Positions 7,642 through 26,412 of a DNA stretch of 26,423 nt are shown one piece after another (position 1 is the stretch's first letter; each line of letters starts with the position of its first letter). Position numbers and translations under genes: made by a program. The DNA lies in the IMG/VR virus record IMGVR_UViG_3300040810_000371, positions 1 through 26,423 of that record. One strand, given 5' to 3'. The notes under the pieces were generated by a model that worked only from the letters and a program-made list of their open reading frames with translations, did not search any database and had not been told where the DNA came from. This stretch comes from a virus.

Positions 7642-8088
7642 TTATTTAGATATACTTCCAGTCTCTTTTTTATTTTTTCCTGGTTCTCTAGTACGAAAGT
7701 TTTCTAAGTCAAAGACTACCTCATTGAGCCAGTTATCAAACTCAGAAGAGTTTTCTACAAGTACTATAGCGTTCTCTGAAGTATACTCCATTTCTTGTGC
7801 TAAATCTTGACCTTTTAAATCTACAAGAATTAAATCTTCTAAGTATGAAAGTTTTAAACCTTTCCAACCTTTTACAGTTGCTTCTGCAAACTCTTTTACA
7901 AATTTGTCATCATCTAACGATTCTTCAAAAGCTCTAGTTTTTCTATTAAACTTGTTTGTTGTACACTTTTTTCTTAAGTTTACTAATTCTTTTCTAGATA
8001 AATTCGCAAGTTCTACTTCAAACCCATCTAAGCCTGGGAATTCTACCCAAGTTGTTTTACTGTCTACCAGTAATGATTTTAAATCCAT
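7642..8088 (-). CDS. Tail assembly chaperone, upstream (gpG-like) ORF
   Basis: The product is 148 aa, acidic and mainly helical, starting MDLKSLLVDSKTTWVEFPG, with no signal or membrane segment. It sits between the tail tube genes and the tape measure, where siphophages encode the short form of the tail assembly chaperone that coats the tape measure before tube polymerisation. A slippery A-rich stretch near its 3' end leads into the gpT-like ORF. Its own ATG has a good ribosome site (AGGAG about nine bases upstream), and that site overlaps the stop of the upstream tube-like gene. The C-terminus is Lys-rich (GKNKKETGSISK), and those codons form the proposed slip site. Function rests on position, size and the frameshift arrangement, not on a recognised domain. 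Confidence 0.75.
   Translation of the reverse strand: MDLKSLLVDSKTTWVEFPGLDGFEVELANLSRKELVNLRKKCTTNKFNRKTRAFEESLDDDKFVKEFAEATVKGWKGLKLSYLEDLILVDLKGQDLAQEMEYTSENAIVLVENSSEFDNWLNEVVFDLENFRTREPGKNKKETGSISK
7663..7680 (-). other. Candidate programmed +1 or -2 frameshift site in the tail chaperone gene
   Basis: Read on the minus strand in the gpG-like frame, the codons are GGA AAA AAT AAA AAA GAG. The gpT-like ORF is in the +1 (equivalently -2) frame, and that frame is open across this stretch. A lysyl-tRNA on AAA at 7668-7666 can slip +1 onto AAG, or slip back two bases onto AAA. The run AAAAAAT also satisfies the -1 heptamer rule, but -1 does not reach the gpT-like frame. Fusion here would give about 141 residues of the first ORF plus 119 of the second. 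Conserved frameshifting in tail chaperone genes is well established for dsDNA phages; the exact slip point is inferred. Confidence 0.6.
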
Positions 8089-8100
8089 TTTATTTTTCTC

Positions 8101-9009
8101 CTAATATGTTATAATGGTTCCTAAATTTGCAGGACTATTAACTAATCGAAAGTCAAAAGTCTGCGTAAAAGCTTCAGCAACACTACTTCTTTTTGTAAAC
8201 ATACAACCTGTAAGATTGGCATTTAAAAAAGTACTACCATTTACTATGGTTTTTACTGCTACGTTTGCTGAAGTATCAAAAGATTGAAAAGTACTAGAAT
8301 TATTACTTGTTAAATATTGTGTAATATTTCCGCTTACTACTCTATCTCCTAATGTATAAGTTGTCGGGTACATTGCATTACTTGCTGAAGTAACTGACAA
8401 ACTATTTTGTAAAGTCTCAAAAGGAGTCCAATTGATATTGTTTTGCACTTGTAAAGTGGCGGTTGCTAGATTAGGTACATCTGTTGAATCTACCTCTACA
8501 TCTAACAAAGATAAGGTGGGAGTTCTAGTCGAACTGGCGCCTACCAGTGAACCTGGAAGCGAATAGCTGGCATCTCCTACTCTACTCAATTGTTTTGCTT
8601 GTCCACTTACACTTAATATAAGTGGTGAGCCTTTTGCTAAATTAAACTCTCCTTGAGTTATTACGCACCCTTCTAATTTAAGAGTGCTTTCTCCTGTTAC
8701 GATATACAAGTCAAAAGATTTTAATAATTGTTCTCCATTGCTTGTATCATAATCAGTTAAAAGACTTTTTACAATTGATTCATCTTTCTCTTGAGTTAGA
8801 TGAACTGCAAAACTAAAGTTTGCAGGATTTGCTTTTGTTACGCTTGTTCCCTGAAACATCTTTGTTTGATCGTGCAAAGTCTTAACTTCGTATGCATCTT
8901 CCGCAAATGTTTGTGAGAACGACACTTCAGGAGTCGTCTTTAATAAGTAACGACTCCCGTTGTGTACGATGTGTACACTACTTTCTCGAAGTAGATTGTA
9001 CGCTGTCAT
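8101..9009 (-). CDS. Tail tube-like protein, shorter paralogue
   Basis: The product is 302 aa, beta-rich, Ser/Thr-rich, with no membrane segment. Several segments line up with the larger protein encoded just upstream: LKLEGCVITQGEF against YRLNECQVNQAEI, NNINWTPFETL against NNITYVTPETLG, and RVVSGNITQYL against RQVSGSLTMYL. In each protein the segments come in the same order and with similar spacing, so I infer the two are paralogues from an old duplication. A two-tube-protein arrangement before the chaperone gene could mean a main tube protein and a minor or terminal ring, or two alternating tube subunits. This one lacks the Gly-rich insert of its partner. Only two bases separate it from the upstream gene, so the pair is co-translated. 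Confidence 0.6.
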   Translation of the reverse strand: MTAYNLLRESSVHIVHNGSRYLLKTTPEVSFSQTFAEDAYEVKTLHDQTKMFQGTSVTKANPANFSFAVHLTQEKDESIVKSLLTDYDTSNGEQLLKSFDLYIVTGESTLKLEGCVITQGEFNLAKGSPLILSVSGQAKQLSRVGDASYSLPGSLVGASSTRTPTLSLLDVEVDSTDVPNLATATLQVQNNINWTPFETLQNSLSVTSASNAMYPTTYTLGDRVVSGNITQYLTSNNSSTFQSFDTSANVAVKTIVNGSTFLNANLTGCMFTKRSSVAEAFTQTFDFRLVNSPANLGTIITY

Positions 9010-9011
9010 TG

Positions 9012-10562
9012 TTATACAGTATAGTCTGTTGCATAAGTAGAGTCTGAATGACTTGTTAAAGCTTTATATTTAACCGTCATTTCATCCCCTGTTAACAGGT
9101 CTGTACCTTGAGCAGCAAATTCAACGGTTGTTGATATAATATCTGCTGTTTCAATAGTAGGTATCTGTAAGTGAGCTTTTGGTAAATCAAATTCAACTAC
9201 TGGAGTTGAAGAAGAACCACCGCCCATAAATAGACTCATGTCAAATGCATTATTAACTAAGTCTGTAGCTGCTGATAAGTCAGATAGTAACGAGTTAGAA
9301 CCATTTGATTTAGTATCTAAATACATTGTTAAAGAACCACTTACTTGTCTAGCACCTGTAAAAGAACCTACTGGTACATCCACAAGACCTAAAGTTTCTG
9401 GTGTTACATAAGTAATATTATTAGCAATAGTTAGTGAGCCCCCTGTGATATTAATATCATAAGTAGTTGTACTATCTGATGCGCCAACTTCTAATATACC
9501 TGAAGCATTTTTTGCATGCGTTAAGCTTAGAGTTGATAGTTTATTTCTTAAGTAATCTGCATCATTAGGTGCAGTTGTGTCTACATAATTATATCCTTCT
9601 GTATAAGTTGCTGCTGTACTTGTTGACTGAGTTCCATCTGTACTAATTAAAGCTTTTGAAGGGTCTTCTATAACTGTTGATACTTGGTCAATAGTTGTAG
9701 CATTTCCTGACCATGTGATAGTAGCAATACCATCAATTGAAAAGTCAATTTCTGCTTGGTTTACTTGACACTCATTTAGTCTGTAAGTTGTATTTTCTAA
9801 TGCGAAGAAAATAGACATTTTTAATAGTTCGTGATGGTCTGACCTTACAAAAGATACATCTGCATCTGTTGAATCACAAGTTACTGCAGTAGCTGAAGTT
9901 CCAGTATTTGAACCTCCAGTAATGTCTTTACCTGCAATAGCTGCCCATAAAATGTTTTCACACATATCCATTGTGCCAGATGATCTATGACTATCTGTAC
10001 CATGCTTGTAAGGTCTTACGTAAGTACCGAAAGACCATTCTGCTGGTGGTAAAGAGTCATTAAATCTTTTTGAGCCTCTATTTGGCTCTGAACCTGCTTC
10101 ACTAATTGTTATATCAGTAGCGTCACTTCCTTGTGAGAAACTATAACCGTCTAATACACCAATTTTGAATGTATTTGCGTCAGTTCCATTTCCTTTAAAA
10201 AGACCTGTTGGTAATCTACTTCCTTGAGCCGTAGTAGCAGAAACTCCTTGTACTACTGCTGCAAATCCAGTTCCATTTGGTGCTGCTGATTGAGTTACTG
10301 TATCATCGTTTGCATATCCTGTTCCTCTAAAGTTATTAGGAATTGCTATAGCGGTAACAGCTCCAGAGCCTCCAATAGCAGTAACTACTACTTTTAGTCC
10401 TGAACCACTACCACTTGTTGTACCCATAGTAATTACATCACCAACAACGTGTCCTGAACCTGCGGTAAATCCGTCTAAGTTTAGTACTGAACCACCACTT
10501 GTGTGTACTCCATTACCTGTTGAGACAAATACCGAGGTATTTCTTGATAGATTTAAAGCCAT
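9012..10562 (-). CDS. Major tail tube-like protein with Gly-rich insert domain
   Basis: The product is 516 aa. After a short N-terminus comes an insert (about aa 22-113) of the 'GxGYxxxDxVT...GxGFxAxV' type (VGDVITMGTTSGSGSGLKV, RGTGYANDDTVTQ, GTGFAAVVQG). I associate this Gly/Thr-rich decoration with virion proteins of many marine phages. The remainder (aa ~130-516) is a beta-rich body that matches the 302-aa downstream protein in several blocks, including one with a VEFAAQGTDLLTGD end. A clear AGGAG ribosome site precedes the ATG. Size, beta content and place between the tail terminator and the chaperone make it the leading candidate for the main tube subunit, with the insert displayed on the outer surface. 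The family name is inferred, not recognised. Confidence 0.65.
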   Translation of the reverse strand: MALNLSRNTSVFVSTGNGVHTSGGSVLNLDGFTAGSGHVVGDVITMGTTSGSGSGLKVVVTAIGGSGAVTAIAIPNNFRGTGYANDDTVTQSAAPNGTGFAAVVQGVSATTAQGSRLPTGLFKGNGTDANTFKIGVLDGYSFSQGSDATDITISEAGSEPNRGSKRFNDSLPPAEWSFGTYVRPYKHGTDSHRSSGTMDMCENILWAAIAGKDITGGSNTGTSATAVTCDSTDADVSFVRSDHHELLKMSIFFALENTTYRLNECQVNQAEIDFSIDGIATITWSGNATTIDQVSTVIEDPSKALISTDGTQSTSTAATYTEGYNYVDTTAPNDADYLRNKLSTLSLTHAKNASGILEVGASDSTTTYDINITGGSLTIANNITYVTPETLGLVDVPVGSFTGARQVSGSLTMYLDTKSNGSNSLLSDLSAATDLVNNAFDMSLFMGGGSSSTPVVEFDLPKAHLQIPTIETADIISTTVEFAAQGTDLLTGDEMTVKYKALTSHSDSTYATDYTV

Positions 10563-18388: not shown

Positions 18389-18612
18389 TGTATTGTCTCG
18401 TCAGGGAATATATTATCTTCTGAATCTATTAGTAAATCCAGCTCTTTTAGTTTAGTGTAAAGGTAGCAGTAAGTAGCCGATACTGTTTTTATCTTCTTCT
18501 CTGCTGGTGATAAGTCTCTAAATTCTTCTACTTTGATTAAATCTTGTAGCATTTTTCCTGCATGTACTATGCCTTCTTCAAGCCATAGTTTTGTTCCGTT
18601 TGCAGTTGCCAT
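18385..18612 (-). CDS. Candidate terminase small subunit, 75 aa
   Basis: This 75-aa protein sits directly before the large terminase, with a four-base overlap, where the small DNA-recognition subunit is usually encoded. It is largely helical (KLWLEEGIVHAGKMLQDLIK, then ATYCYLYTKLKELDLLIDSE). I see no classic helix-turn-helix DNA-binding motif, and it is shorter than typical TerS proteins (about 100-180 aa). It could be a very reduced TerS with only an oligomerisation core, or an unrelated small protein with TerS encoded elsewhere. Its ATG overlaps the upstream basic-protein stop as TAATG. Assignment is by position only. Confidence 0.35.
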   Translation of the reverse strand: MATANGTKLWLEEGIVHAGKMLQDLIKVEEFRDLSPAEKKIKTVSATYCYLYTKLKELDLLIDSEDNIFPDETIH

Positions 18613-18953
18613 TATCTTCTCCTTTTTAGTCCTAATGTTCTTTTTTGTGATTTAGGCGGACGCTTCTTAGAGCCTCCTTTACCTGCCCAAAACACTTTGT
18701 TTGCCCAGTATGCTGCTGAAGATTTCCCTTTTCTAATGTTTTTAGCATGTCTTGCCTTAAAACTTCTTCTTGCTTCTGGACTGTAGTTATGGCCCATACC
18801 TTGAGCCCCAAATCTTATAATCTTTACTTTACCACCAACTTTTACAGCTACTACGGCTTTTTTGGTTTTATGGTTTGGGGTTCTTTTCGGTTTGTTAAGT
18901 CCGCTAAGACCTGCTCTTTTTAGCCTTGCTTTTTCTGCTGCTGTTAGTGCCAT
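18612..18953 (-). CDS. Basic phage protein, DUF6321-like
   Basis: The product is 113 aa and extremely basic. It opens ALTAAEKARLKRAGLSGLNK PKRTP, then VGGKVKIIRFGAQGM, then ARRSFKARHAKNIRKGKSSA AYWANK, and ends in RRR. I recognise this order (KARLKRAG, IIRFGAQG, SFKARHAKNIxKGKxSAAYWANK) from a small conserved family common in marine phages; I believe it is the DUF6321 type, but the number is from memory. The function is not established. Strong charge and the aromatic AYWANK suggest DNA binding, perhaps in the packaged genome or terminase complex. A ribosome site TAGGG lies about seven bases before the ATG. It is the gene before the TerS candidate and shares a TAATG with it. Confidence 0.65.
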   Translation of the reverse strand: MALTAAEKARLKRAGLSGLNKPKRTPNHKTKKAVVAVKVGGKVKIIRFGAQGMGHNYSPEARRSFKARHAKNIRKGKSSAAYWANKVFWAGKGGSKKRPPKSQKRTLGLKRRR

Positions 18954-19036
18954 CTTTCATCCCTATAAGTAAAGATTTCTTTACTACTTTGTCGAGTCTT
19001 CCCGACTTCATAATTTTATTGATTTGTTTTAAAATA

Positions 19037-19309
19037 CTATCTTCTTCTCCTTCTCGTCAATAAAGTAGAAGGTGTTTTCTTTCCAAACTTTGCTCTTTTA
19101 GGGTTGACTGTTTTACCAAATCTTGGCCCTACTGCTTTTGGTGCTGCACCATAAAATCCACCTGGTGTGGACATTGGTGACTTAGTGTTTACATAAGTTC
19201 CAGCTGCTGCATTTAAATCACGAGTTAAACCTCTTTTTAATACATGCTTTCTTAGCTTGGAAGTTGAGTGGACACTTGGTCCGCTTAAAAATCCGCCTTG
19301 TCTTGCCAT
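19037..19309 (-). CDS. Small basic protein with Arg-tail, 90 aa
   Basis: I do not recognise this protein. It is 90 aa with a strongly positive charge and a low-complexity make-up rich in Gly, Thr, Pro, Lys and Arg, ending TLLTRRRRR. Segments such as KLRKHVLKRGLTRDL and PRFGKTVNPKRAKFG are basic with few hydrophobics, so it is probably disordered without a partner such as DNA or RNA. The stop is 83 bases upstream of the next ORF, and its ATG follows a short gap after the 57-aa gene. It belongs to a series of such proteins here. DNA condensation or terminase/portal accessory function are both possible. Confidence 0.6.
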   Translation of the reverse strand: MARQGGFLSGPSVHSTSKLRKHVLKRGLTRDLNAAAGTYVNTKSPMSTPGGFYGAAPKAVGPRFGKTVNPKRAKFGKKTPSTLLTRRRRR

Positions 19310-19328
19310 TTTTAATTCCTATCTACTC

Positions 19329-19502
19329 TTAACGAGTACTTTGGCTTATTAGCCTATTAATGAGAACCTTATTATTTGGGGTTCTCGGTAAATTTAATAA
19401 CTTTTTTAGTTGGCAGCCATACTCTAATTCTAAGTGAACTGCCGTTTTTAATCTTTGTGATAAATCTAATACTTTTTCAATCTCTTGAGTTAGATTATTC
19501 AT
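19329..19502 (-). CDS. Small helical protein, 57 aa
   Basis: This 57-aa ORF is below the usual length cut-off. It starts MNNLTQEIEKVLDLSQRLKT and ends in a basic segment with ISQSTR. It begins three bases after the stop of the DUF5872-like gene, with a purine-rich AAGAAG upstream. The first ~38 residues form an amphipathic helix (EIEKVLDLSQRLK, HLELEYGCQLKKLLNL), so it may form a small coiled-coil oligomer. I see no known family. The gap between neighbours would otherwise be nearly 200 bases in a tightly packed operon, and this ORF fills it in the right orientation with a clear start. It is probably real, but the function is unknown. Confidence 0.5.
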   Translation of the reverse strand: MNNLTQEIEKVLDLSQRLKTAVHLELEYGCQLKKLLNLPRTPNNKVLINRLISQSTR

Positions 19503-19505
19503 ATT

Positions 19506-19787
19506 TTACTTCTTCTTTCGACGTCTCCGTTTAGTAAAAGTACGTACGTTAGTGGGTCTTCCACCAACGCCTTGAGGTACTGCCCTCTTACGGCGAACTG
19601 CCGACCTTTTCTGAGCTTTGCTCATTGTTCTTGCACGTGCTAAAGGAACACACTTTGGGTATCCTTTTCGTGAAGTTTTTGCAGACTTTCGTCCACAAGG
19701 TTGATATCTACCCTTTTTCTTAGGTCTAGATATATCTACCCATTTTTCTTTAAACCACTTTGATAATCCACCCTTAGGTTTAGCCAT
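19506..19787 (-). CDS. Basic protein, DUF5872-like
   Basis: The product is 93 aa, read from ATG at 19787. A longer reading from 19817 adds ten residues, but 19787 matches the family's first residues, MAKPKGGLSKWFKEKWVDIS, and overlaps the previous stop by eight bases for coupling. It continues RPKKKGRYQPCGRKSAKTSR and GYPKCVPLARARTMSKAQKR. The pattern 'GGLxxWFxExWVDIxRP...G.YxPCGR....GYPKCVP' is one I recall as DUF5872, found in tailed phages and also in large eukaryotic viruses. The function is unknown. Two cysteines (PCGR, PKCVP) are conserved in that pattern and might bind metal or form a disulfide. The end RRRRKKK is almost pure charge. Nucleic-acid binding is likely. Confidence 0.7.
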   Translation of the reverse strand: MAKPKGGLSKWFKEKWVDISRPKKKGRYQPCGRKSAKTSRKGYPKCVPLARARTMSKAQKRSAVRRKRAVPQGVGGRPTNVRTFTKRRRRKKK

Positions 19788-20031
19788 CTTGATGATGGTC
19801 CATCTCTCCATCTGCAATATAGTTTGCAGCAGATACTACTTCATATTCTGAAATTGCTATTTTATTTGTAAACCAAGTAGGTAAATCCGCTTCTGGATTA
19901 TCTAAATGGTCTAAAATCATTTGCGAATGTGAAATTATAGTCTTACAGGATTTAATTACTGATGCGGCATCAGTGTGCCCATCTTTCTGTACTAATACGA
20001 ATTTTCCGTCTTTTAAAAGTTTAGCTTCCAT
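19780..20031 (-). CDS. Conserved small phage protein, 83 aa
   Basis: The product is 83 aa and acidic to neutral, unlike its basic neighbours. The segment SCKTIISHSQMILDHLDN, followed by ADLPTWFTNKIAISEYEVVS and AANYIADGE, fits a recurring phage family pattern of 'helix - xLPxWxxxKIxxAxxYxxxxxxYI'. I have seen this as a C-terminal module in small virion-associated or hypothetical proteins of cyanophages and pelagiphages. Its biochemical role is not known to me. It overlaps the upstream 44-aa gene by 11 bases and the downstream basic protein by eight. Helical structure and the LPTW motif suggest a protein-protein adaptor. Confidence 0.6.
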   Translation of the reverse strand: MEAKLLKDGKFVLVQKDGHTDAASVIKSCKTIISHSQMILDHLDNPEADLPTWFTNKIAISEYEVVSAANYIADGEMDHHQDG

Positions 20032-20155
20032 TTTTTACTTTTTGCTCAGCTTCAATCAATTTGTCTTTGATGTCTACTGACCCGTCCCAGTTCTTATCTT
20101 TTCCTGTGACTATATTTAATATTTGTGTTAGTTTAAGTTTAAACCAATCTATCAT
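20021..20155 (-). CDS. 44-aa protein with EF-hand-like calcium loop
   Basis: This 44-aa ORF starts MIDWFKLKLTQILNIVTG, an amphipathic or short membrane-surface helix, and continues KDKNWDGSVDIKDKLIEAEQ. The stretch DKNWDGSVDIKD has Asp at position 1, Asn at 3, Asp at 5, Gly at 6, Val at 8, Asp at 9 and Asp at 12, matching the EF-hand/dockerin loop. It is flanked by a helix on each side, as expected. The ATG overlaps the upstream stop as ATGA, and the stop overlaps the next gene by 11 bases, so it is in the translational chain. It may be a small Ca-binding protein near holin and lysis genes, or a virion helper. Function is inferred only from the loop. Confidence 0.6.
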   Translation of the reverse strand: MIDWFKLKLTQILNIVTGKDKNWDGSVDIKDKLIEAEQKVKNGS

Positions 20156-20355
20156 TTTTTATTTTTCCTTGCAACGCCCATTCTGTATCGTCCGCCACGC
20201 TGCTTATATGTTTTTACTAACCATCCATTTGCATATGCACTTGGATAGACCTTAAATTTTCTTTTTGCTTCAGCTTTTACTCTTGCGTATAAAGCTGGAT
20301 TAGTTGGCACTGGCCTTTTCTTAGTGGCCTTCCTTTTTCTCTTTCTTACTGCCAT
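20152..20355 (-). CDS. Small basic conserved phage protein, 67 aa
   Basis: The product is 67 aa, beginning AVRKRKRKATKKRPVPTNP and containing ALYARVKAEAKRKFKVYPSA, then YANGWLVKTYKQRGGRYR. This 'ALYxxVKxEAKxKFxVYPSAYANGWxxxxYKxRGGxYR' pattern recurs in marine phages and is compact, helical and basic. I recognise it as a family but not a function. It overlaps the end of the preceding 138-aa gene by 35 bases. It sits in the same run as the DUF5872-like and DUF6321-like proteins and probably shares a nucleic-acid role. Confidence 0.65.
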   Translation of the reverse strand: MAVRKRKRKATKKRPVPTNPALYARVKAEAKRKFKVYPSAYANGWLVKTYKQRGGRYRMGVARKNKK

Positions 20356-21372: not shown

Positions 21373-21570
21373 CTAACCATGCATTGAAAACATAGTCCAT
21401 ATGATGCCAGCGCCCGCTACGATAAGGGTGCCTGACACACTAATTAATATTGTTTCTATTCTGCTTACGGAGTTTTCGATGTCGTCAAACTTATTGAAAC
21501 AAGTTTTCCACCGTTCTGCGCATACAGCTTCGTGCTTGGCAAGTTCCCCGGCCACTTCGTTAACATCCAT
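21373..21570 (-). CDS. XhlA/holin-like small membrane protein
   Basis: The product is 65 aa. Residues 1-38 form a charged helix (CAERWKTCFNKFDDIENSVS), and residues about 41-61 form one hydrophobic transmembrane segment (ILISVSGTLIVAGAGIIWTM). A coiled-coil helix followed by one membrane segment is the layout of XhlA-type haemolysin/holin proteins; a phage spanin or an anti-holin is possible too. No endolysin is visible next to it, and this window may not include one. It is the first gene after the promoter at 21613, so it is likely to be made strongly with the other late genes. Confidence 0.55.
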   Translation of the reverse strand: MDVNEVAGELAKHEAVCAERWKTCFNKFDDIENSVSRIETILISVSGTLIVAGAGIIWTMFSMHG

Positions 21571-21644: not shown

Positions 21645-23426
21645 TTATTTTCTGATGGTGTATATTTTAACTGGTTCGGACTTTCCTTTTACCGTCACTT
21701 CGTCGAGGAACTCGTAGTCAAAACCGTCAACTAAACTGTGTTCGGATATGATTAAATCCGCATCATAGTCTTTACAAGAGGACTCTAACCTTGCAGCCAG
21801 ATTAACCGCATCGCCAAGGACACTGTAATCGAAGCGAGTAGTAGAGCCAAAATTCCCAACCACGCAAGGACCTGTATTGATGCCAGCACCTGTATTAATT
21901 TGGTCAAGGCCTTCATTTTTAAGTGTTTCATTTAATTCTCCTAAAGCTACTCTCATTTCAAGGGCGGCTTCTGTAGCTTTTCTCTCTTGTTCTTCCACAT
22001 CAAGCGGAGCATTCCAAAAAGCCATAATACAATCGCCCATGTATTTATCAATTGTACCTTCGTGTTTTAAAATAATTTCAGTCTGGTTGTCAAGAAAACG
22101 ATTAATTAAGCGAGTAAGACCTTGGGGGTCTTTTTGGTATTTTTCAGAAATTGGTGTGAATCCTCGAATATCTGAAAAAAGAAAAGTAAGTCGTTTTGTC
22201 TCCCCACCCAATCTCAGTAATGTTGGGTCGTCCTGTAATTTTTTCACTAAGTCTGGACTTACGTACGTGCCAAATTGTTGTTTAATTTGTAATCGAAGCA
22301 AATATTGCGTAATGAAGTTACGGAAACTTTCAATAGCCCAGAAAGTAAATGCGATAAAAATAGTGCCAGAAACGTCAACCAAGTAAGAAGATTTCCACAT
22401 TTCCAGCGTAAAGTAAATAAGCCCTCCAATAGTTAGTACTAAAACTGGAAGTGAAAGCCATATACGAGATACAGTAATTGAAAGTAATAGTAGAGCTAAA
22501 AGGGCGGCTCCTAACTCTACTGCTACATTCCATGTCGGGATGGACGGACTGTTTCCTTCTATAAGGGAGTGAAGTATATTTGCTTGAAGTTCATGTGGAT
22601 GTACAGCTCCTCGTGCTGTAGGCACGGGGTTAGTTACTCCTTCTGCTGTAACTCCGAAGATAACAAAAGGTGCTGGTATTGGGTTCTCCATATACTCAGC
22701 TGCAGTTTGTCTATGAAACTTTATATTTTGTTGTACCCATATTCTACCATTAGCATCAGTATTTATATTGGGATAGTTTGGTATTCTTATCCACTCTACT
22801 CCAGCTTCATTAGTTTTTATTTGATAGCTTGGGTCGCCTACTGCAACTCTTAACATTTCAAGTGCAAAACTTGGATATAGTTTGTCTTTGCTACCTACGA
22901 CGACGGGCATGCGCCTTACGACGCCGTCTATTTCTGGACTTGAGTTTATTAAGCCTACGCCCTCTGCGTTTAGCTGTAAGATTGATAGTTGTCGTAAAAT
23001 TCCCGGATAGTTCAATAGCCATGGTACTGGATTCTCCCCTAATTGTGCTGTGCCTATATGAGGCCCTGATTCAATAGATTGAGTGGTAGCCGCATAAGCT
23101 AACACCGTTGGTTTCTCAAACATTACTGCTCCTAATTTATAATCATTAGAAGAGTCTCTTAAGTCAGGGTCAGGCATCAATAGTGTAAGACCAGAAACAC
23201 CTTCTGTTCTATCTATCATGCTTGCAAATAAACTTCTTGGCAGAGGATATCCTCCGTAAGCTTCTACTATCTCTTCGTCAAGGTCGACAAGAAGTATATT
23301 TTCATTTTGAATTGTTGGGGATTTTGACATTAAGTAATCGAATGTACTTAATTCAAGTAATTTAAAAGGGTAAGGGTTCCAGATTAGGAGTCCCATTGAA
23401 AGTAGTATTAATATTAATCTAATCAT
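21645..23426 (-). CDS. Membrane CHASE2 - class III adenylate cyclase
   Basis: The product is 593 aa. A short N-terminal membrane anchor (MIRLILILLSMGLLIW) precedes an extracytoplasmic CHASE2 sensor (about aa 25-295; ILLVDLDEEIVEAYGGYPLP and RRMPVVVGSKDKLYPSFALE are typical). Three close transmembrane segments follow (about aa 300-365), then a class III cyclase domain (about aa 410-593). The catalytic set is complete: metal Asp419 (FSDIRGF) and Asp465 (KYMGD), Lys461 for adenine choice, Ser535 at the other adenine position, and Asn542 and Arg546 (NLAARLE) for catalysis. An adenylate cyclase making cAMP is therefore predicted. CHASE2 cyclases next to FecR-domain proteins are common in bacteria, and here they are in a phage. 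There is no clear ribosome site; the start overlaps the upstream stop by eight bases. The ligand is unknown. Confidence 0.95.
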   Translation of the reverse strand: MIRLILILLSMGLLIWNPYPFKLLELSTFDYLMSKSPTIQNENILLVDLDEEIVEAYGGYPLPRSLFASMIDRTEGVSGLTLLMPDPDLRDSSNDYKLGAVMFEKPTVLAYAATTQSIESGPHIGTAQLGENPVPWLLNYPGILRQLSILQLNAEGVGLINSSPEIDGVVRRMPVVVGSKDKLYPSFALEMLRVAVGDPSYQIKTNEAGVEWIRIPNYPNINTDANGRIWVQQNIKFHRQTAAEYMENPIPAPFVIFGVTAEGVTNPVPTARGAVHPHELQANILHSLIEGNSPSIPTWNVAVELGAALLALLLLSITVSRIWLSLPVLVLTIGGLIYFTLEMWKSSYLVDVSGTIFIAFTFWAIESFRNFITQYLLRLQIKQQFGTYVSPDLVKKLQDDPTLLRLGGETKRLTFLFSDIRGFTPISEKYQKDPQGLTRLINRFLDNQTEIILKHEGTIDKYMGDCIMAFWNAPLDVEEQERKATEAALEMRVALGELNETLKNEGLDQINTGAGINTGPCVVGNFGSTTRFDYSVLGDAVNLAARLESSCKDYDADLIISEHSLVDGFDYEFLDEVTVKGKSEPVKIYTIRK

Positions 23427-23856
23427 ATTTATTTATTAAGTATAGGTTATTAATTGTTGCTAGAGTTACCAAAAAGTTAATTAAAGATAAGGCTTCATCA
23501 GCGCCAGGAGTATTATCAAATATTCCTAATCTTTCAAGAGTATAAGATACTATAATTTTTTGAGCTAAAAGTTCTTCTATCTCTGGTGTATCATCAAGTA
23601 AAATATTTTGTTCATACAAATTATCTCGATTTTCTAAAGCATAGATTGTTGTGGCTAAATCAAGTGTATTAATTATTACGAAGTACTTGTGTTTTGGATT
23701 TTGAAAATTAAAACTATAGGAGTACTCAACAGCCTCTATCCTAGCTCCATCTTGTTGCATTTGCTCAAAGTCAAAAGGTTCATCAACCAGAAGATTGTTT
23801 GATTGTAATAGTGGAGCTACTGCCAGAATTAATAATAACGTTATATGCTTTGCCAT
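23419..23856 (-). CDS. Exported or membrane protein of unknown function, DUF5658-like
   Basis: The product is 145 aa. It starts with a signal-like stretch (MAKHITLLLILAVAPLLQSN). The central segment FVIINTLDLATTIYALEN, followed by an acidic 'NILLDDTPEIEELLAQKIIV' and a second hydrophobic part (INFLVTLATINNLYLI), resembles the DUF5658 pattern 'xxLNxxDxxxTxxxL...ExNPLL...KxxxxxL'. In that family the central motif is usually inside a membrane protein. The usual 'EANPLL' is NILL here. A role as a partner of FecR or the cyclase is inferred only from its position between them. The start overlaps the FecR end by 74 bases. A start at 23757 would avoid the overlap but lose the signal. Confidence 0.5.
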   Translation of the reverse strand: MAKHITLLLILAVAPLLQSNNLLVDEPFDFEQMQQDGARIEAVEYSYSFNFQNPKHKYFVIINTLDLATTIYALENRDNLYEQNILLDDTPEIEELLAQKIIVSYTLERLGIFDNTPGADEALSLINFLVTLATINNLYLINKYD

Positions 23857-24892
23857 CTTGTTCTATAATTATATTGTACTCGGTTTCGCCATTTAAATCT
23901 AACTGTACAGAGTGTGTAATACTACGTATTAAAGTTATTTTATCTGCGTCACCAAAGGTGGTTATTTGGGTAGAAGAGTCTGTACCATAGTTAGTACCTT
24001 TTATATCTAACTCTGTAAAAAGTTGTTCTCCTACAGTTTTTTGTTCTCTTATCTCAAGAGCGTCTAATTCTTCAATTACTTCGAGTAAGTCTTCGAGAAA
24101 GTTTACATCTAAGTAATCTATATCGAGTTCATCAAAGTATAAGTCATCTTCTGCTAAGTAGTCTTGATTTAATTCGTCAAATTCTAATAAGTCTACATCA
24201 AGTATGCCGCCTGCATTATTTGTACTTGTTTCTTCTTCTCCTGGTAATACTTCTTCTTTTGGAGGAGAAACTATCAACATATTATCAATAATATCTAAAC
24301 TTAAGTCTAATATTACTGGTTTGGTAGGTTGTTGCTCCCATACGCTTGTTACTGTAGATTGAAAAGGTTTACTTAGTATTACTTCTCCCATCGCTGTTGT
24401 GACAGTAATTTCACCTGATGAAATACCAAACTCATCAGGAAGAAGTATAACCAAACTACGACCCAGCTCATCAACAGTAACGGTAAAATCAGTGCCTCGA
24501 ATACCAATTTTAGATGTTGGCGTTTCGATTGAAATATTTTCTTTATTAATTGCACCTATCTTACCTGTTATGAAACGAGCCGTTCCACTTGCAAACTTCA
24601 TAGACATTTGTGACTTACTTGGATTTGGGTCAAAGATTACTTTGTCTATTATTAGTTTGCTATGTTCTGTTAGTCTTACTATTGAATCATCTAAAAATGT
24701 AATGCCTACTCGCCCATTAGCTGTTTGAACATTATCCATTTGTTCAATGTCAAATCCTAAGTCCGTTTCGTAGGGCTTGTCTCTAAGTACTTGCCCTACT
24801 CCACGTTGTTCTGTAATGCTTCCTATATTATCAGCATGTAGTGGTAGACCCACCATCATTCTGAATAACACAAATATTACTATTAGACGCAT
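23783..24892 (-). CDS. Secreted FecR-domain protein with acidic ladder
   Basis: The product is 369 aa from the ATG at 24892; a TTG nine bases upstream is an alternative. Signal peptide: MRLIVIFVLFRMMVGLPLHA. The FecR domain follows (about aa 25-190): NGRVGITFLDDSIVRLTEHS and the hallmark ETPTSKIGIRGTDFTVTVDE. After a Pro/Glu linker comes an Asp/Glu/Leu ladder (about aa 225-290; DVDLLEFDEL, LYFDELDIDY, LEDLLEVIEE). The last ~60 aa are beta-prone and end with EYNIIIEQDGKAYNVI and SSSTITIKQSSG, similar in rhythm to curlin repeats. FecR domains sense or scaffold in the periplasm; free-standing ones often pair with CHASE2 cyclases. It overlaps the curlin gene by 62 bases at its 5' end and the next gene by 74 bases. 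Confidence 0.9.
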   Translation of the reverse strand: MRLIVIFVLFRMMVGLPLHADNIGSITEQRGVGQVLRDKPYETDLGFDIEQMDNVQTANGRVGITFLDDSIVRLTEHSKLIIDKVIFDPNPSKSQMSMKFASGTARFITGKIGAINKENISIETPTSKIGIRGTDFTVTVDELGRSLVILLPDEFGISSGEITVTTAMGEVILSKPFQSTVTSVWEQQPTKPVILDLSLDIIDNMLIVSPPKEEVLPGEEETSTNNAGGILDVDLLEFDELNQDYLAEDDLYFDELDIDYLDVNFLEDLLEVIEELDALEIREQKTVGEQLFTELDIKGTNYGTDSSTQITTFGDADKITLIRSITHSVQLDLNGETEYNIIIEQDGKAYNVIINSGSSSTITIKQSSG

Positions 24893-25547
24893 TACTTTCA
24901 ATTTTTAACCAGTCTGCTGCCAGCGTTGATTGTTGTTTAATCACCGCTGTATTGTTACTACCATCTAAATCTAAATAGAAATATTTGGCGTCACTTGAAC
25001 TAGCTCCATACCCAGATTGGATAAATGTTAAGTCATTACTGTCTCCAAAAATATCCATATACATAGTCGCATAGTCTGCGTCTAAGTCTACTTCTGAATC
25101 GTTACTATCTCCATCAATAATCCAATCGATGTCTAAATAACTTGCTCCTGAGACTTCTGCAATATCAATGTCAGTCATGTTTAAACTACCAGTAATATCA
25201 ATATTTATATCGTTACTATCTGCAGTATTTAAACCTGTAGTATCCATACTAAACTCAAAAGTATTGCTGTCGCCATCAAACTCAAAAAAGCCTATAAGAC
25301 TATTTCCGAATATCCCATCAGTAAGAAACTTATTAGAACTTCCTATTTGGTTGATGTCGAGTGTCATACTTGTACCATTTAATACGGCTGCTGTCATTGT
25401 ACCCGCAACGGCATCTGTATCTCCAATCAAGTTGGTGCTTCCTAATTGCTCTATGTCAATGGATGCATTATTACCTGTTTGGTCAATATAGATTTCATTG
25501 TCTGCGTAAAGACCGATTGATAAAAATAAGGCTATTAAAGCTCTCAT
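24831..25547 (-). CDS. Curlin-like repeat protein, secreted
   Basis: The product is 238 aa with a signal peptide (MRALIALFLSIGLYA, cut before DNE). The rest consists of about eight repeats of the form hydrophobic/polar strand - G-x-x-N - strand: IYIDQTGNNASIDIEQLGST, INQIGSSNKF, FDGDSNTFEF, ITGSLNMTDIDI, IDGDSNDSEVDL, IFGDSNDLTFIQ, LDGSNNTAVIKQ. The rhythm fits CsgA/CsgB-type curlin repeats (xxQxGxxNxAxxxQ), but with many Asp residues (GDSN), which could give Ca binding or control of polymerisation. The end has ICVIQNDGG and a terminal Cys. It follows the CsgG gene by one base with a GGGAG ribosome site, so its export by that CsgG is likely. Whether it forms amyloid is inferred. No CsgE or CsgF is visible here. 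Confidence 0.85.
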   Translation of the reverse strand: MRALIALFLSIGLYADNEIYIDQTGNNASIDIEQLGSTNLIGDTDAVAGTMTAAVLNGTSMTLDINQIGSSNKFLTDGIFGNSLIGFFEFDGDSNTFEFSMDTTGLNTADSNDINIDITGSLNMTDIDIAEVSGASYLDIDWIIDGDSNDSEVDLDADYATMYMDIFGDSNDLTFIQSGYGASSSDAKYFYLDLDGSNNTAVIKQQSTLAADWLKIESNASNSNICVIQNDGGSTTTC

Positions 25548-25548
25548 T

Positions 25549-26412
25549 TCACTCTCCCATATAGTACTTCCAGTACCCTTTCTCTATTCCCTGAGTTACC
25601 AGTTCAACTATTGCCGTTTCAATAGCTGCCTGTACAGCAATGTATTTCGGCTCATTCATGGCGTTGCCACTTTCAGCTTCAATCAAATTATTATCAGCAT
25701 TAAATCTGAAATAATCATTGCTAATTCCCACGGAGAGAATTGCTTTAGATGCAAGGATTTCTATTAAAATTTCTCCTGTACTCACAGAAACCATTCTAAT
25801 TGAAACCACTACTTTATCCTCGCGATATTGTTTGGAGTTTCCTATACCTAAATAGCGGGCTCCTACTCCCCCTGTTAATAAATTGGTATTGTAATCAACG
25901 ATACCCCCTTCGATGATTAAGCCAGCATATAGTAGTGGTAGTTGCTTGTCTTCATCTTCAAATTTTTGTCTTGTTTGTCTTATAAGTTGTCTTTCTTTTG
26001 TAAGATGGTCTAAACCTTTTCTTTCAACAACTTTAAAAAATCCTGATTGTTTAAATGCACGAATTAAATATGCTTCGGGTGCTTGTGTCACTGCACTTGA
26101 AAAGTCTGCTATACCATCTCTGGACTTTCTTTGTCCTGTTAAATCTTCAAACTTATATATTGCCACCACAGGTGTTCTTGCTGGCATAGGTAAATTTTGT
26201 ATGGCTTTTGTTACAGGTTTTTCAATTATAGAATTACCAGAAAAACATTGCGCTTTCCCTATAACACTAACAACATCTTTGTAGTCTCCGTCTGGGTTTG
26301 TTACACAAGGTGACACATAACTGTAATGTGTCCAGTTTGCACAACTAGCCAGTAGGAAAACCGAAGTCGCCAATAGGAATTGTAATTGTGGTCGTTTCAC
26401 CTGTTGCCTCAT
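25549..26412 (-). CDS. csgG: CsgG-like curli secretion lipoprotein
   Basis: The product is 287 aa. Signal peptide with lipobox LASC, so Cys24 is the lipid attachment site. A 45-residue N-terminal part with two more Cys precedes the conserved domain. From VVAIYKFEDLTGQ onwards it follows E. coli CsgG closely: DFSSAVTQAPEAYLIRAFKQ, FFKVVERKGLDHLTKERQLI, LLYAGLIIEGGIVDYNTNLL, TGGVGARYLGIGNSKQY, VSIRMVSVSTGEILIEILAS, and AIETAIVELVTQGIEKGYW. CsgG forms the nonameric outer-membrane pore that exports curlin. The loop before DFSSAV, which forms the pore constriction, has lost the aromatic Tyr and has Asp instead of Asn. The ATG at 26412 appears to overlap an upstream stop (TAATG) at the window edge, so the operon probably extends beyond. 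Confidence 0.95.
   Translation of the reverse strand: MRQQVKRPQLQFLLATSVFLLASCANWTHYSYVSPCVTNPDGDYKDVVSVIGKAQCFSGNSIIEKPVTKAIQNLPMPARTPVVAIYKFEDLTGQRKSRDGIADFSSAVTQAPEAYLIRAFKQSGFFKVVERKGLDHLTKERQLIRQTRQKFEDEDKQLPLLYAGLIIEGGIVDYNTNLLTGGVGARYLGIGNSKQYREDKVVVSIRMVSVSTGEILIEILASKAILSVGISNDYFRFNADNNLIEAESGNAMNEPKYIAVQAAIETAIVELVTQGIEKGYWKYYMGE

What the first reader, a model, noticed from the sequence alone, without database searches (positions are those of the whole stretch)
21645..26412. Phage-borne curli secretion, FecR and CHASE2-cyclase module
Seen: five genes in one tightly overlapping run encode a CsgG channel, a curlin-like repeat protein, a secreted FecR-domain protein, a small exported protein and a CHASE2 adenylate cyclase. 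They abut the late promoter and phage lysis/packaging/structure genes on the same strand. Known: CsgG exports curlin; FecR proteins frequently neighbour CHASE2 cyclases in bacteria. CsgG-like genes have been noted in marine viral genomes (from memory). Inference: the phage brings a complete sense-signal-secrete unit: an envelope signal read through FecR/CHASE2 raises host cAMP, while a surface fibre or plug is exported through CsgG. Possible roles are changing host surface adhesion, blocking other phages at the envelope, or clumping infected cells. I do not know of a described system that joins all five genes.
Basis: partly seen in the sequence, partly recalled or inferred. Interest (0 to 1): 0.9.

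Follow-up and report, generated by a model that had tools for sequence, protein, structure and literature searches.

The report
T5-like phage's curli and cAMP-signal module
A marine T5-like phage carries a gene cassette for exporting curli-type surface fibres together with an envelope sensor and a cAMP-making enzyme; the cassette is already known from two other marine phage groups, but its near-universal presence in this third group, and the curli-like tail on its sensor protein, are new here and hint at how the parts work together.

Summary
Five overlapping genes encode CsgG, a curlin-repeat protein, a secreted FecR-domain protein, a small exported protein and a CHASE2 class III cyclase with an intact active site. 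CsgF and two small membrane proteins lie just past the window end in a 98%-identical relative. It is phage DNA: a T5-like siphophage, not host flank.

The claim that no described system joins these genes is wrong. HTVC008M and Melnitz carry the module, and Wittmers 2022 described T8SS + FecR + cyclase in T4-like and podovirus pelagiphages.

New here: (1) a third carrier, a marine T5-like lineage, where the module splits terS from terL and occurs in 10 of 11 terL-centred loci with at least 5 kb upstream; (2) a DUF5658-like secreted protein replacing or joining the second curlin; (3) nearly every phage FecR protein (81/82) ends in a curlin-type strand, absent from 39 cellular FecR partners; (4) cellular CHASE2 cyclases related to the phage ones often neighbour giant FecR proteins, three of the six scanned carrying RTX or cadherin repeats, never csg genes.

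Best reading: curli-type export whose fibre-linked FecR protein reports to the cyclase. Genes and order are shown; fibre, cAMP and benefit are inferred. Host unknown.

The parts
25549..26412 (-). CsgG-family outer-membrane channel (287 aa, lipobox-like LLASC)
   Evidence: Pfam CsgG 2.7e-47, phrog_20175 1.7e-60
24831..25547 (-). curlin-repeat protein with N-terminal hydrophobic signal-like stretch (CsgA/B-like)
   Evidence: Pfam Curlin_rpt 2.9e-4 over cut-off; family HMM matches curlins beside cellular csgFG
23783..24901 (-). secreted FecR-domain protein: FecR fold ~24-208, disordered linker ~210-268, C-terminal beta domain ~300-369 ending in a curlin-type strand (ITIKQSSG)
   Evidence: Pfam FecR 2.5e-10; AF2 model and fold matches; terminal motif in 81/82 relatives, Q369 invariant
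23419..23856 (-). 145-aa exported helical protein, DUF5658-like family, in the slot where other members carry a second curlin
   Evidence: no Pfam hit for the window copy; family members hit DUF5658 at 1e-3 and 0.02, under the cut-off; alignment A3; model pLDDT 78.6, no PDB match with E under 1
21645..23426 (-). CHASE2 sensor + class III adenylate cyclase, catalytic D419, K461, D465, S535, N542, R546
   Evidence: Pfam; each active-site residue kept in at least 145 of 146 aligned phage homologues
21613..21641 (-). conserved sigma-70-type promoter TTGACT-N17-TATAAT directly after the cyclase stop, reading into holin-like/packaging genes
21373..21570 (-). 65-aa coiled-coil + C-terminal TM protein (XhlA/holin-like), first gene after the module; not part of the five
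   Evidence: phrog_38642; conserved in the T5-like loci; XhlA likeness is by eye

Best explanation
This is the T5-like-siphophage version of the known pelagiphage curli/FecR/cyclase module. CsgF and CsgG form an outer-membrane channel that exports curlin-repeat protein as a surface fibre on the infected cell. The FecR protein is not an iron regulator but the coupling piece: its folded periplasmic FecR domain sits next to the CHASE2 domain of the cyclase, and its curlin-type C-terminus docks into, or is exported with, the fibre machinery. The cyclase thus reads the state of fibre export and converts it into cAMP in the infected cell. The likely benefit is remodelling of the infected cell's surface (superinfection exclusion or aggregation). 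Shown: gene identities, order, conservation, intact active site, FecR terminal motif. Inferred: fibre, FecR-CHASE2 contact, cAMP production, benefit. The confidence is for the mechanism; that it is a member of this module family is close to certain.
For: Order TM1-TM2-CsgF-CsgG-curlin-FecR-(curlin2 and/or small protein)-cyclase holds in T5-like and T4-like contigs. FecR C-terminus: curlin-type strand phi-x-phi-x-Q-(0-4)-COOH in 44/44 T5-like and 37/38 T4-like/unassigned FecR proteins, also in 29/30 T5-like second curlins and 36/36 T4-like/unassigned first curlins, but in 2/795 other ORFs and 0/39 cellular FecR partners. The FecR model matches the PupR cell-surface signalling domain (Z 16.5) and, for residues 23-118, a 'cell surface anchoring domain' (5IX9, Z 9.1). 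In cells a FecR-domain gene was found near 39/80 related CHASE2 cyclases, 26 directly upstream, median 1517 aa; of six scanned, three carried RTX or cadherin/Ig repeats. Active site conserved.
Against: No amyloid or cAMP data. No CRP/cNMP-binding domain in the phage records searched; host and its cAMP receptor unknown. CsgE was not seen in the module, as in known members. Profile comparison of the FecR C-terminal domain with curlins is weak (hhalign probability 7%), so the terminal motif could be convergent; first curlins of the T5-like lineage end in this motif in only 2 of 39. Buchholz 2022 saw no clumping of Melnitz-infected cells.
Confidence: 0.5

Rival explanations
1. Repurposed pore: CsgGF acts as a gated secretin or pinholin that helps time lysis, and the other genes are accessory (Buchholz 2022 proposal).
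For: Proposed for Melnitz; in the T5-like lineage the module lies next to a holin-like TM gene and a conserved strong promoter.
Against: That proposal rests on absence of curlins, yet Melnitz and HTVC008M are annotated with curlin-associated proteins in the module, and at least one curlin is present in essentially every locus long enough to tell. FecR and the cyclase are unexplained.
Confidence: 0.15
2. Signalling module first: the phage raises host cAMP through the CHASE2 cyclase to reprogramme host transcription or metabolism, and the curli genes are a passenger or downstream output.
For: Catalytic residues of the cyclase are almost invariant; in gammaproteobacterial models cAMP feeds curli regulation through CsgD (stated in PMC9599517).
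Against: No CRP/cNMP protein in the phage records searched; the FecR partner carries the curlin-type terminus, tying the sensor to the fibre rather than to a diffusible cue.
Confidence: 0.2
3. Nutrient or cofactor uptake: an ungated CsgG channel imports iron chelates or cofactors, with FecR as iron regulator (one option in Wittmers 2022).
For: FecR name; absence of the gate CsgE (noted in PMC9599517).
Against: FecR here lacks a cytoplasmic anti-sigma part and its only strongly hydrophobic stretch is the N-terminal signal; no over-cut-off FecI-type sigma in the 12 records searched and a TonB plug domain in one only; the curlins would be unexplained.
Confidence: 0.07

Closest known systems
Pelagiphage T8SS (curli) module of Wittmers 2022 (PMC9599517), incl. 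Pelagibacter phage HTVC008M and Methylophilales phage Melnitz
   Same: CsgF, CsgG, curlin, FecR, CHASE2-cyclase in the same order; two small genes upstream of csgF
   Different: Carrier is a T5-like siphophage; module sits between terS and terL; a DUF5658-like secreted gene replaces or joins the second curlin; proteins only 35-44% identical. The 'histidine kinase' upstream is, here and in HTVC008M, probably the 80-115-aa TM/coiled-coil paralogues with no kinase domain
Bacterial curli / type VIII secretion (csg operons)
   Same: CsgF, CsgG, curlin repeats
   Different: No CsgE, CsgC or CsgD recognised; FecR and cyclase added. Five alphaproteobacterial csgFG loci have neither within about 9 kb
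Cellular FecR + CHASE2 class III cyclase pairs (mostly Alphaproteobacteria)
   Same: FecR-domain gene beside a CHASE2 cyclase 32-37% identical to the phage one
   Different: Cellular FecR partner is 486-3065 aa, three of six scanned bearing RTX or cadherin repeats; none of 80 loci has csg genes, nor do 20 of the genomes have CsgF

Membership tests
Pelagiphage T8SS module (Wittmers 2022) | CsgG + curlin + FecR + adenylate cyclase colocated in conserved order | tested here: met
Pelagiphage T8SS module (Wittmers 2022) | CsgF directly upstream of CsgG | tested here: met
   Beyond the window end; present in relative L002, whose cyclase is 98% identical (Pfam CsgF 3.3e-19)
Pelagiphage T8SS module (Wittmers 2022) | Histidine kinase(s) upstream of csgF | tested here: inconclusive
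   In relatives the two upstream genes are ~80-130-aa TM/coiled-coil paralogues without a kinase match; in HTVC008M homologous genes stand there, so the published label probably refers to the same genes, but the paper's gene list was not read
Pelagiphage T8SS module (Wittmers 2022) | Carried by T4-like myovirus or HTVC023P-type podovirus (as published so far; a matter of host range, not of the module's make-up) | tested here: not met
   T5-like markers: terL 49%, portal 41%, major tail 38% to T5-like phages; My1, Slocum and SP3 are Demerecviridae
Curli / T8SS | Exported amyloid fibre | not testable with these tools
   needs expression and staining
Class III adenylate cyclase | Two metal Asp, adenine-binding Lys and Ser/Thr/Asp, transition-state Asn and Arg | tested here: met
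   D419, D465, K461, S535, N542, R546; residue roles from established knowledge of the family
FecI/FecR iron regulator | Cytoplasmic anti-sigma region + single TM | tested here: not met
   N-terminal hydrophobic signal then FecR fold from residue ~24, no other TM-like stretch
FecI/FecR iron regulator | Cognate ECF sigma factor and TonB receptor | tested here: inconclusive
   Sigma70_r4_2: three of 12 records have weak hits, none over cut-off; TonB plug domain in one of 12; most records are fragments
Demerecviridae-like (T5-like) phage | T5-type terS/terL/HNH nuclease/portal/major tail gene order | tested here: met
   window order matches Serratia phage Slocum except that terS and terL are parted by the module in relatives

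The most novel reading that the evidence does not exclude
The FecR protein is a two-ended tether: a periplasmic retention/sensor domain, akin to the N-terminal anchors of giant surface adhesins, joined by a flexible linker to a curlin strand that engages the exported fibre or CsgG. CHASE2-cyclases, in cells and phages, are then surveillance enzymes that report on the biogenesis of a surface fibre or adhesin whose FecR end stays in the periplasm, and phages re-plugged this sensor from adhesin-type partners onto a curli exporter.
Probability: 0.3. Interest if true: 0.75.

Novelty: new variant of a known kind. Interest (0 to 1): 0.52.

Why it matters
A virus building an exported fibre plus its own envelope-to-cAMP signalling line would be an unusually elaborate takeover of the infected cell's surface. 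Finding it as a near-constant part of a third, unrelated tail-type lineage points to strong selection for it, and the curlin-type end of FecR gives a concrete, testable link between the secretion and signalling halves that published work left unexplained.

Tried and rejected
Host DNA at the edge of a prophage: rejected, since the module lies inside phage contigs up to 75 kb with T5-like replication and structural genes and between terS and terL. Phage-encoded cAMP receptor: none found with PF00027 or PF00325. Host from tRNAs: none in the 15 stretches scanned; distant DNA matches to Melnitz and HTVC008M are only ~100 bp and too weak to assign SAR11/OM43. Cellular csg operons with FecR/cyclase: none in five alphaproteobacterial loci. 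PDB fold of the small protein: no match with E under 1. Sequence profile of FecR against PDB: only a chance hit at E 0.24. Profile homology of the FecR C-terminus to curlins: weak. Podovirus versions were not retrieved; 34 of the 80 HTVC008M-like loci could not be assigned to a lineage by the T4-like/T5-like markers used. A paper search for curli with siphovirus/SAR11 or T5-like/marine found no report of this carrier, within the open-access library held.

Full report
Observation. The five ORFs exist at the stated places on the minus strand, with 1-nt spacing or 8-74-nt overlaps. Pfam names CsgG, Curlin_rpt, FecR and CHASE2 + class III cyclase; the 145-aa protein has no Pfam hit. Separate PHROG families already hold phage relatives of CsgG, FecR and the cyclase, so phages with these genes were in databases before.

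Phage identity. The rest of the window is a T5-like siphophage late region: terL, HNH nuclease, portal, protease/head protein, head-tail adaptor, tail terminator, major tail protein. Best matches are T5-like phages at 38-49% identity; My1, Slocum and SP3 among them are Demerecviridae. The record is a 26,423-base virus contig.

Already described. Pelagibacter phage HTVC008M and Methylophilales phage Melnitz carry CsgF-CsgG-curlin-FecR-curlin-cyclase in the same order. Zaragoza-Solas 2020 (PMC7029224) reported the csgFG cluster; Wittmers 2022 (PMC9599517) reported T8SS with FecR, 'HK' and adenylate cyclase in podovirus and myovirus pelagiphages, its ocean-wide spread and expression, and proposed aggregation and superinfection protection; Buchholz 2022 (PMC9004378) proposed a pinholin/secretin. 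Two corrections: Melnitz was said to lack curlins, yet its record annotates curlin-associated repeat proteins; and the two genes before csgF in HTVC008M and in the T5-like loci are homologous ~80-130-aa TM/coiled-coil proteins without a kinase domain, which are probably the published 'HK'.

What is new: a third lineage. Scanning viral contigs with the window cyclase gave 80 loci, T5-like where markers are present, with the module in the same order. To remove the query bias I scanned with terL: of loci with at least 5 kb upstream of terL, 10 of 11 carry the cyclase, and the five with 10 kb carry CsgF, CsgG, curlin and FecR too (several of these contigs are also in the first set). The exception, L311, has other secreted-looking proteins in the region. 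In a canonical relative terS and terL overlap (Slocum); here they are about 9 kb apart with the module between (terS = phrog_3802 at 1.3e-39). A near-consensus sigma-70 promoter follows the cyclase stop in 74 of 78 loci. In a maximum-likelihood tree of 85 cyclases, phage sequences are apart from 25 cellular ones, and the T5-like ones form one side of a fully supported branch (quick method, midpoint root).

Variable slot. My count (51 T5-like loci with both FecR and cyclase): about 19 have only the DUF5658-like protein between FecR and the cyclase, 18 only a second curlin, 7 both, 7 neither; in four of the last the second curlin sits before csgF. The window is of the first type. No T4-like/unassigned locus hit the small-protein HMM.

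FecR. The model has a FecR fold (24-208), a low-confidence linker and a C-terminal beta domain with strands about 10 residues apart. The fold matches the PupR cell-surface signalling domain (Z 16.5) and a cell-surface anchoring domain, 5IX9 (Z 9.1; from memory the N-terminal anchor of a giant RTX ice-binding adhesin). The C-terminus ends phi-x-phi-x-Q-(0-4 residues) in 81 of 82 phage FecR proteins, the same ending as many phage curlins, against 2 of 795 other ORFs and none of 39 cellular FecR partners. I defined the motif after seeing the T5-like sequences, so its count there is descriptive; the T4-like/unassigned set, counted afterwards, serves as a partial replication. Direct profile comparison of this domain with curlins is weak.

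Cellular counterparts. Of 80 related cellular CHASE2 cyclases, 39 have a FecR-domain gene in the fetched flank, 26 directly upstream on the same strand, median 1517 aa; of six scanned, two carry RTX repeats and one cadherin/Ig domains. None has csg genes, and 20 of the genomes hold no CsgF. Conversely five alphaproteobacterial csgFG loci have curlins but no FecR or cyclase. In these samples the two halves are apart in cells and joined in phages, as Wittmers 2022 also states.

Mechanism. Best reading, with inference marked in its field: curli-type export plus a FecR-tethered, CHASE2-read check on the fibre, feeding cAMP. The active site is intact; Melnitz alone in the A1 alignment has Ser at the transition-state Asn. 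No cAMP receptor is phage-borne in the records searched, and the host is unknown, so the downstream effect is open.

Verdict. Real and correctly read at the gene level; known as a kind; new as a lineage-wide T5-like variant with a swapped slot and a new structural clue for coupling.

Noticed in passing
L002:1148-1729, L007:5125-5712, L016 near 1441: A DNA/RNA non-specific endonuclease with an N-terminal signal-like stretch (Pfam Endonuclease_NS 1.7e-28 in L002) lies between terS and the module in a few relatives but not in most others; possibly a periplasmic nuclease against superinfecting DNA.
   Followed up: partly
L083 (Melnitz) cyclase, 7932-9980: The transition-state Asn of the cyclase is Ser in Melnitz although the other catalytic residues remain; the enzyme may be impaired or altered.
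   Followed up: no
L311:1442-4024: T5-like relative in which the gene before the holin-like one is not the cyclase; between the holin-like gene and terL it has several small secreted-looking proteins with no known family, perhaps another surface cassette.
   Followed up: partly
window 18612-20355: Cluster of small very basic proteins (57-113 aa, several ending in Arg/Lys runs) between the module and terL, conserved in relatives; one matches a phage 'minor head protein and DNA pilot' family (phrog_220).
   Followed up: no
Salmonella phage record OR851715.1 (1499 bp): A 1.5-kb 'phage' record that encodes CsgG; most likely a fragment of the host csg operon.
   Followed up: no
L342 (G007:C1:28163-28444): A T5-like contig carries a 1083-aa ORF with a TonB-receptor plug domain over the Pfam cut-off, unusual in a phage.
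   Followed up: no
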